A stretch of DNA of 37,730 bases, taken from contig JAFCDN010000023.1 of the NCBI GenBank assembly GCA_017609625.1, positions 1-37,730 of the forward strand. The letters are read 5' to 3'. Of the stretch, positions 36,350-37,730 are shown piece by piece. Every line of letters starts with the position of its first letter. The first letter of the stretch is position 1. Source of the DNA: Candidatus Iainarchaeum sp. Lineage in GTDB: Archaea; Iainarchaeota; Iainarchaeia; Iainarchaeales; 1-14-0-10-31-34. The notes under the pieces are model-generated. The model did not search any database. It had not been told where the DNA came from and saw only the letters and a program-made list of their open reading frames with translations. A program made the translations under genes and the position numbers.

Positions 36350-36667
36350 ATGAAAGCAGTGATTGAAATAAAAGAATTAAAGCAGGACTGGAATCCGCCT
36401 TTCCAGAAGAAAAACGCAATAAAAGAAATTGAAGTAGAAGAAGGAGAATTATTTGAATCAAACGGAAACGGAGGAAAAGTATTTCAATTGGTTAAAATAG
36501 GAAAAGACAGGGTTTTAGTGGAATATGACGCGGAATACACAAACAAAGGCCATGTTCATCCAACCAACAGGCAGCTTTGGATTGGAAAAGATGACGGAGA
36601 AAGTTTCTCGCAGTTATGGGGAAACGACGGAGTAACAAAAACTTTAAGATTAAAGGAATTGAAGTGA
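36350..36667 (+). CDS. Small protein, unknown
   Basis: The 105-residue product reads MKAVIEIKELKQDW at the start and then alternates beta-strand-like segments with charged loops. A GHVHPTNRQLWIGKDD stretch contains two histidines and a Trp but does not match a metal site I know. It is probably a small beta-barrel or sandwich. It is four bases before the cysteine-rich gene and in line with the interrupted pth2, so the three are co-transcribed. TATA-like TTAATAAAG lies about 30-38 bases upstream. No family is recognised. Confidence 0.55.
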   Translation: MKAVIEIKELKQDWNPPFQKKNAIKEIEVEEGELFESNGNGGKVFQLVKIGKDRVLVEYDAEYTNKGHVHPTNRQLWIGKDDGESFSQLWGNDGVTKTLRLKELK

Positions 36668-36671
36668 TTTA

Positions 36672-36863
36672 ATGGGATGTGGCTGTTGCGAAACAGAAGA
36701 AAAAGAACACAAATATGAATGCCGCGGAAAAGAAATGGAATGCAAAGACGACAAATATGTCTGCAGTGAATGCGGAAAAGAAATATCATGCAAATGTACA
36801 GAAGAACCTAAAGAAGAAACAACAGAAGAAAAAACTGAAGAACCAGAAGAAAAAACTGAATAA
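36672..36863 (+). CDS. Cysteine-rich small protein with acidic tail
   Basis: The 63-residue protein starts MGCGCCETEEKEH and contains nine cysteines in the first 42 residues: CGCC, YEC, MEC and CSEC, then CKC. It could bind one or two metal ions. The last 20 residues are only E, T, K and P in a repeated EE-x-T pattern. No family is recognised. It sits between the 105-residue gene (4 bases) and the start of pth2 (11 bases), in the same direction. Confidence 0.55.
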   Translation: MGCGCCETEEKEHKYECRGKEMECKDDKYVCSECGKEISCKCTEEPKEETTEEKTEEPEEKTE

Positions 36864-36874
36864 TTTGATTTTAA

Positions 36875-36949
36875 ATGGAATTCAAACAAGTTATTGTAAT
36901 TAGAACTGACTTGAAGATGCAGTTAGGGAAGATTGCAGTAAACTTTTAA
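36875..36949 (+). pseudogene. pth2: First exon or 5' fragment of peptidyl-tRNA hydrolase 2 (Pth2)
   Basis: ATG 36875 opens MEFKQVIVIRTDLKMQLGKIAV and then N-F-stop at 36947. The first 22 residues fit archaeal Pth2 (KQVIVxRTDLKMxxGKxAxQxAHA), which releases peptides from drop-off peptidyl-tRNA. The match ends just where Q-x-A-H should follow, inside the most conserved part. Only 23 bases separate the stop from the homing endonuclease ATG. The rest of Pth2 is absent from the window, so it is either truncated or continues after an inserted element. I therefore label it a fragment. It follows the cysteine-rich gene by 11 bases. Confidence 0.75.
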
Positions 36950-36972
36950 TCTTATCGAACAAACATATTTAT

Positions 36973-37686
36973 ATGAAAATTTACGATTCTAAAGAATATT
37001 TAGAAGAACAAATCAAAACCAAATCCTATCTACAAATAGCCAAAGAAAACAAGGTAAATAGTTCCACAATTTGTAGAAAACTCAAAAAATTTAAACTTAC
37101 AAATCCTTCAGAATTTTGGACTGAAAATGAAATACAAATTTTAAAAGAAAATTATTCTAACTTAGAAAACATACATTCTTTTTTTCCTAATAGAACAAGA
37201 TACTCTGTTTATCATTTTGCAAATAAGATTGGGCTTAATAGACCTATAAGAAAAAGATACTATGAAATAGATGAAAACTTCTTTAAGAAATGGACAAATG
37301 AATCTAGTTATACTTTGGGTTGGGCGTTTAGCGATGGAAATGTTTCAAAAGATGGAAGAACCTTTGGTTTTCACCTACACAAAAAAGATATTAAAATTTT
37401 AAAAATACTTAGAGAAATGATGAGCAGTAAACACAAAATTTTTTTATATGGAAATGCAGTTGAATTTAGAATACACAGCAAAAAAATGTGCAAGGATCTA
37501 ATCTCTCTTGGATGCACACCTAAGAAAAGCTTAAATATAAAATTTCCTTCAAACTTGCCTAGAAGATATCTTAAGCACTTTGTTAGAGGTTATTTTGATG
37601 GGGATGGAAGCATATATTTTAATTATCCAAATACAATCAAAATAAATATGCCTGTAACTAAAGAATTCCTAGACGAATTGAGATAG
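36973..37686 (+). CDS. LAGLIDADG homing endonuclease-like protein (C-terminus interrupted by TAG)
   Basis: The 237-residue product has an N-terminal HTH (SYLQIAKENKVNSSTICRKLKK) and a Myb/SANT-like helix block (FWTENEIQILKENY). Two LAGLIDADG-type motifs follow: YTLGWAFSDGNVS (about residue 113) and FVRGYFDGDGSI (about residue 203). Such enzymes cut a long DNA site so that their host intron or intein can spread. It stops at TAG 37684 only about 25 residues after the second motif, where 60-80 more are usual. The frame then stays open to the window end, so a nonsense change or readthrough is possible. It lies inside pth2. Confidence 0.75.
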   Translation: MKIYDSKEYLEEQIKTKSYLQIAKENKVNSSTICRKLKKFKLTNPSEFWTENEIQILKENYSNLENIHSFFPNRTRYSVYHFANKIGLNRPIRKRYYEIDENFFKKWTNESSYTLGWAFSDGNVSKDGRTFGFHLHKKDIKILKILREMMSSKHKIFLYGNAVEFRIHSKKMCKDLISLGCTPKKSLNIKFPSNLPRRYLKHFVRGYFDGDGSIYFNYPNTIKINMPVTKEFLDELR

Positions 37687-37730
37687 AGATTTTTTAAGAT
37701 AATTAATACAAAAATGCCAAAAATGAAGAA

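What the first reader, a model, noticed from the sequence alone, without database searches (positions are those of the whole stretch)
36875..37730. Pth2 gene interrupted in its most conserved motif by a LAGLIDADG element
The first 22 residues of archaeal peptidyl-tRNA hydrolase 2 are readable (MEFKQVIVIRTDLKMQLGKIAV), then the match ends exactly before the Q-x-A-H part. A LAGLIDADG homing endonuclease gene begins 23 bases later. An intein is ruled out by the stop codon and the lack of a splice-type first residue. An mRNA intron (self-splicing or cut by the tRNA-type endonuclease) or a free-standing homing insertion fits best. Introns in archaeal protein genes are rare (cbf5 is the known case), so an intron in pth2 would be new to my knowledge. 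The break site falls at a highly conserved spot, as homing elements prefer.
Basis: partly seen in the sequence, partly recalled or inferred. Interest (0 to 1): 0.82.

Follow-up and report, generated by a model that had tools for sequence, protein, structure and literature searches.

The report
Self-mending homing element in archaeal pth2
A selfish DNA-cutting gene has inserted itself into an archaeal gene for recycling stalled tRNAs, and it carries a re-written front end for that gene, so the gene still works; related elements do the same to other genes, including metK, which looks like a natural version of a 'home-and-rescue' gene drive.

Summary
In detail: codons 1-22 of pth2 (36875-36940) end just before the conserved Q-x-A-H motif, and a LAGLIDADG gene starts at 36973. 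The window is a whole contig that ends inside that gene. A second contig of the same genome (C31) starts with the rest of the endonuclease, which runs into a COMPLETE pth2 with a different 5' end. A congener has the whole array on one contig; another congener has an empty site. It is therefore not an intron, an intein or a dead gene. Best reading: a homing element that cuts pth2 at its conserved motif, inserts, and supplies a recoded replacement 5' end, leaving the old one as a remnant. I found 13 pth2-linked elements in Diapherotrites, Nanoarchaeota/Woesearchaeota and Micrarchaeota. Pth2 lies immediately downstream in 12 (in the other the contig ends first), and the 5' remnant is clear in 6-7. 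Sister endonuclease clades sit in front of metK (remnant in 3 of 8) and probably a uracil-DNA glycosylase gene. The known parallel is fungal mitochondrial mobile ORFs that replace C-termini (PMC3630166). I found no report of the mirror-image N-terminal version, or of any version in archaea. Cleavage and mobility are inferred, not shown.

The parts
36875..36940 (+). Native 5' remnant of pth2, codons 1-22 (open to a stop at 36947-36949), ending just before the Q-x-A-H motif
   Evidence: PSSM score 50.6 vs null maximum 19.1
36941..36972 (+). Left end of the element: spacer between remnant and nuclease, similar in the congener G001
36973..37730 (+). LAGLIDADG homing endonuclease gene: N-terminal helix-turn-helix region plus two LAGLIDADG domains. 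It continues on contig C31 (bases 13-252; stop 253-255). The TAG at 37684 is contig-end or strain variation.
36350..36667 (+). Conserved neighbour gene (105 aa, no Pfam family) that lies upstream of pth2 in carriers and non-carriers; it marks the syntenic empty site (flank, not part of the element)
36672..36863 (+). Small Cys-rich ORF between the neighbour gene and pth2; also present in G001 (flank)

Best explanation
This is a free-standing LAGLIDADG homing element that targets the pth2 gene and repairs what it breaks. Inferred mechanism: (1) the nuclease recognises the conserved GK-[ILV]-A-A-Q-x-A-H coding site near codon 22 of an uninvaded pth2 and cuts it; (2) repair from an element-bearing copy inserts the nuclease ORF plus a divergent, recoded copy of pth2 codons 1 to about 25, joined in frame to the native body; (3) the old 5' end is left upstream as a remnant that decays; (4) the new pth2 is expressed from the same transcript, usually overlapping the nuclease stop and in one case fused to the nuclease; (5) the recoded site is no longer cut. 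Shown by sequence: order of parts, empty sites, chimera breakpoint, remnants, recoding and recurrence. Inferred: cleavage, homing, co-transcription and immunity.
For: Order remnant - nuclease - complete pth2: in G000 across two overlapping contigs, and on one unbroken contig in congener G001 (L008/L065). Empty site in congener G002 and family member G003. This is the only complete pth2 in G000. Chimera: the carriers' pth2 compared with native G002 shows 50-75% nt identity up to codon ~24, then 83-92%; native-native pairs show no such drop. 13 nuclease loci of the clade in three DPANN phyla; 12 have pth2 immediately downstream, the 13th ends at a contig end. Remnants above every null value in G000, G001, L066, L067, L070, score 37 in eroded L279, and p=0.002 in G014. 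Recoded residue before A-Q: C or S in 5/5 carriers of the order vs 5/28 non-carriers (Fisher p=0.001). Nuclease under purifying selection (dN/dS 0.16) with a two-domain meganuclease fold. The same layout recurs at metK with remnants in L255, L259, L261 (p=0.0003). The nuclease clades sort by target gene: pth2 0.999, metK 1.0, rmlA 1.0.
Against: No cleavage or mobility data. No remnant found in L069, L071, L276, G070 or L278, and only weak in G046. L069 keeps a native-like site (GKLAAQ), unexplained if recoding gives immunity. The chimera step is shown in one genus only; in the G046/G070 family sequences are too diverged to show it. The G000-G001 remnants differ mostly at synonymous sites (pN 0.13, pS 0.52, Fisher p=0.004), so either both insertions post-date the host split or the remnant peptide is still used. 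In G000 the two contigs overlap at only 92%.
Confidence: 0.86

Rival explanations
1. An mRNA intron (group I or bulge-helix-bulge) carrying the nuclease: the 22-codon exon is spliced to the QAAHAS body, and the second 5' end is intron sequence.
For: The remnant in G000/G001 ends in frame at the motif and shows codon-level constraint. Group I introns with nuclease genes occur in archaeal rRNA genes (PMC6125680).
Against: No intron family above Rfam threshold. Bulge-helix-bulge arrangements are no commoner than in shuffles, with no in-frame candidate in G000, G001 or L067. The second 5' end is itself a conserved coding 5' end with its own start. The remnant is interrupted or lost in other carriers, yet pth2 stays intact; G046 fuses nuclease and Pth2 in one ORF.
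Confidence: 0.04
2. A dead pth2 fragment (partial duplication or assembly join) with a nuclease gene nearby by coincidence.
For: The fragment alone cannot be a peptidyl-tRNA hydrolase; G000 is a fragmented assembly of 70 contigs.
Against: The same order and breakpoint occur in a congener on one contig and in other phyla, and the nuclease clade is always beside pth2.
Confidence: 0.03
3. The nuclease has become a resident of the pth2 operon: it no longer homes, and the remnant acts as a translated leader peptide that controls nuclease and pth2 expression.
For: Conserved overlap with or fusion to pth2; constraint on the remnant between G000 and G001; nuclease clades largely follow host phyla.
Against: Patchy presence within genera (1 of 5 in g36, 1 of 5 in g10, 2 of 3 in g1), broken copy in G070 and eroded copy in L279 fit a gain-and-loss cycle. 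The remnant is missing or decayed in many carriers.
Confidence: 0.07

Closest known systems
Fungal mitochondrial mobile ORFs with replacement C-termini (Allomyces atp6; Glomus atp6, atp9, cox2, nad3; PMC3630166)
   Same: Endonuclease ORF inserted in a conserved protein gene, carrying a divergent in-frame replacement of the part it cuts off; the native end is left as a remnant; the gene becomes a hybrid.
   Different: Mirror image: here the 5' end (N-terminus) is replaced and the nuclease lies upstream of the gene. Host is DPANN archaea, targets are pth2, metK and others, and the nuclease clade has an N-terminal helix-turn-helix region.
Engineered home-and-rescue (HomeR) gene drives (PMC7968924)
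   Same: Nuclease aimed at an essential gene, linked to a recoded rescue of that gene.
   Different: Natural, LAGLIDADG protein nuclease instead of Cas9, archaeal; essentiality of pth2 in these hosts is assumed, not tested.
Free-standing phage homing endonucleases (seg and mob genes of T4-like phages; PMC2988022)
   Same: Endonuclease gene without intron or intein.
   Different: As far as I know (from memory), those usually sit between genes or split a gene; none is known to me that brings a replacement 5' end.
Nuclease-bearing group I and bulge-helix-bulge introns of archaeal rRNA/tRNA genes (PMC6125680)
   Same: LAGLIDADG nuclease in a conserved site.
   Different: There the insert is removed from RNA; here the gene is restored at the DNA level.

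Membership tests
LAGLIDADG homing endonuclease | Two LAGLIDADG motifs with acidic residues and the meganuclease fold | tested here: met
   LGWxFSDGNV and RGYFDGDGSI invariant in the acidic residues; PF14528 above cut-off; AlphaFold model pLDDT 85.6 matching LAGLIDADG meganucleases in PDB
LAGLIDADG homing endonuclease | Site-specific double-strand cleavage of the uninvaded allele | not testable with these tools
   needs an in vitro cleavage assay
Mobile ORF with replacement gene end (fungal mitochondrial type) | Divergent replacement of the severed gene part joined in frame to the native body | tested here: met
   chimera step at codon ~25 in G000 and G001 against G002
Mobile ORF with replacement gene end (fungal mitochondrial type) | Native severed part retained as a remnant beyond the nuclease | tested here: met
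   pth2 remnants in G000, G001, L066, L067, L070, L279
Mobile ORF with replacement gene end (fungal mitochondrial type) | The C-terminal end is the replaced part | tested here: not met
   the N-terminal end is replaced; hence a variant, not a member
Group I intron | Conserved catalytic core recognised by Rfam | tested here: not met
   no match at gathering score in five carrier loci
Archaeal bulge-helix-bulge intron | BHB geometry at both splice sites, product in frame | tested here: not met
   counts equal to shuffles; no in-frame homologous candidate in G000, G001, L067
Intein | Continuous frame through the insert with splicing blocks | tested here: not met
   stop after remnant codon 24 and separate start of the nuclease

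The most novel reading that the evidence does not exclude
A whole class of natural home-and-rescue elements in DPANN archaea: target-specific LAGLIDADG lineages (pth2, metK, probably uracil-DNA glycosylase, rmlA and others), each bringing a recoded, cut-resistant 5' end of the conserved gene it attacks and moving between cells by homing.
Probability: 0.65. Interest if true: 0.85.

Novelty: new variant of a known kind. Interest (0 to 1): 0.74.

Why it matters
It gives a natural prokaryotic counterpart of the engineered home-and-rescue gene drive, in which a selfish nuclease carries the repair of the gene it destroys. It explains how intron-less homing genes can live inside indispensable coding sequences without splicing. 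It implies DNA exchange and homologous repair among uncultured DPANN archaea. It also predicts testable target sites for a set of new meganucleases (pth2, metK). The recoded, immune 5' ends leave a readable record of past invasions, visible even after the nuclease is eroded (L279).

Tried and rejected
Intron: Rfam and BHB scan were negative, and remnants are broken in other carriers. Intein: stop codon. Dead fragment or assembly error: excluded by G001's unbroken contig. Viral origin: IMG/VR holds only distant relatives (up to 42%, mostly under 38%). Distant bacterial relatives (about 30%): no gene-end remnant at comparable scores; many lie next to tRNA genes and were left aside. rmlA-linked and dnaE-linked nucleases: adjacent and overlapping, but no remnant found, so not claimed as the same. 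Chimera test in the G046/G070 family: too diverged to decide. No solved structure found by sequence.

Full report
OBSERVATION. The window is a complete contig (G000:C66) of a 1.35-Mb, 91.7% complete genome. The close relative G001 is 'Candidatus Diapherotrites archaeon' CG10. Bases 36875-36940 encode MEFKQVIVIRTDLKMQLGKIAV, the start of archaeal Pth2, and reading stops at 36949. A LAGLIDADG ORF starts at 36973 and runs off the contig. The Pth2 match is far above chance.

WHAT LIES BEYOND THE CONTIG END. A search of the same genome finds one complete pth2, at C31:242-592. The first 252 bases of C31 encode the end of the same nuclease. C31 and the window end overlap by 96 columns at 92% identity, and the window's TAG at 37684 reads AAG there. 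The nuclease stop (C31:253-255) overlaps the pth2 start (C31:242) by 14 bases. The real order is therefore: 22-codon pth2 remnant, complete nuclease gene, complete pth2 whose first ~24 codons differ from the remnant (MLEYKQVIVIRVDLNMGKGKLSSQ).

INDEPENDENT CONFIRMATION. In congener G001 the whole array lies on one contig: neighbour gene, Cys-rich ORF, remnant MEFKQVIIIRTDLGMGRGKIAA, nuclease (78% identical), complete pth2. Congener G002 and family member G003 have a single uninterrupted pth2 behind the same neighbour gene: the empty site.

CHIMERA. Against native G002, the complete pth2 of G000 and G001 has 50-75% nucleotide identity in eight-codon blocks starting up to codon 21. It jumps to 83-92% from codon 25 on. 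Over the whole 5' part it is 59-64%, while natives G002 and G003 share 79% there. The remnants, not the new 5' ends, resemble the native 5' end (73-74% versus 59-64%). So the element brought a divergent 5' end and joined it to the native body.

RECURRENCE AT PTH2. Searches of GTDB genomes, the host phylum and two further phyla gave 13 loci of this nuclease clade: G000, G001, G014, G046, G070, L066, L067, L069, L070, L071, L276, L278 and L279. In 12 the next gene is pth2 on the same strand, overlapping or touching, and in G046 fused in one 430-aa ORF. In L278 the contig ends inside the nuclease. Upstream remnants ending at the same codons score above all 4,000 null stretches in G000, G001, L066, L067 and L070. 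The eroded copy L279 scores 37: it keeps the remnant, the last 43 residues of the nuclease and pth2. G014 is weaker (p=0.002). The others show none. G070 carries a nuclease with internal stops. Presence is patchy inside genera. This looks like a cycle of invasion, decay and loss.

RECODED SITE. In native Pth2 the motif is GK-x-A-A-Q. In carriers the first A is C (7), S (2) or A (1, L069). Within the order it is 5 of 5 carriers against 5 of 28 non-carriers (p=0.001). This fits loss of the cleavage site, but it is an inference, and relatedness of the sequences is not corrected for.

GENERAL CLASS. Distant nucleases of the same superfamily in Nanoarchaeota- and Micrarchaeota-phylum genomes sit directly in front of metK (L254-L259, L261, L269, L277). 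Three carry metK remnants (L255 MSKYFFTSESVTEG|, L259 MAKITYFTSE|, L261 MKDYRFTSESVS|; p=0.0003 each), and L277 is marginal at p=0.04. One is in front of a uracil-DNA glycosylase gene with a plausible remnant (L260). Four are in front of rmlA without a detectable remnant. The nuclease tree groups strictly by target: pth2 0.999, metK 1.0, rmlA 1.0.

NUCLEASE. It has an N-terminal helix-turn-helix region and two LAGLIDADG domains. The AlphaFold model (pLDDT 85.6) matches LAGLIDADG meganucleases and intein endonucleases. dN/dS between G000 and G001 is 0.16, so it is or recently was functional.

ALTERNATIVES. An intron is contradicted by the independent complete pth2, broken remnants elsewhere, no Rfam hit and no BHB excess. 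One observation stays open: the G000 and G001 remnants differ mainly at synonymous positions (p=0.004). Either both insertions are younger than the host split, or the remnant peptide still serves a purpose such as a leader.

PRIOR KNOWLEDGE. Fungal mitochondrial mobile ORFs replace C-terminal gene parts in the same way (PMC3630166). Ten literature searches found no archaeal or N-terminal counterpart; most subscription papers are not in that library. The logic equals engineered home-and-rescue drives (PMC7968924).

VERDICT. Sequence anatomy is shown; cutting, homing and immunity are inferred.

Noticed in passing
L256 about 2203-2233 (after GHPDK codons of metK) and L277 about 2197-2232: Two metK genes behind a nuclease carry a 31-nt or 36-nt insertion with a frameshift or stop right after the GHPDK codons; in L256 the ends are inverted repeats (ACTCAA/TTGAGT). 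Possibly a mini-intron or a repair scar.
   Followed up: partly
L040-L043: Nuclease genes of one clade lie directly upstream of and often overlap rmlA (glucose-1-phosphate thymidylyltransferase) in four genomes, but no rmlA 5' remnant was found.
   Followed up: partly
L044 72-2407: A nuclease ORF overlaps the start of a gene that looks like a PHP-domain DNA polymerase III alpha subunit (named by eye, not by a family search).
   Followed up: no
L038 1156-2445 (- strand), same record as L068: Nuclease and Pth2 are fused in a single 430-aa ORF; whether the fusion protein or an internal start is used is unknown.
   Followed up: no
L089, L090, L095, L125, L126 and similar loci of Patescibacteria/Omnitrophota: Distant relatives (about 30%) appear to lie next to tRNA genes (downstream ORFs read through tRNA-like VGSNPT sequence); possibly tRNA-directed elements.
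   Followed up: no
window 37635-37730 versus L005 2-95: The two contig ends overlap at only 92%, suggesting strain variation or errors at the ends, including the apparent stop at 37684.
   Followed up: yes
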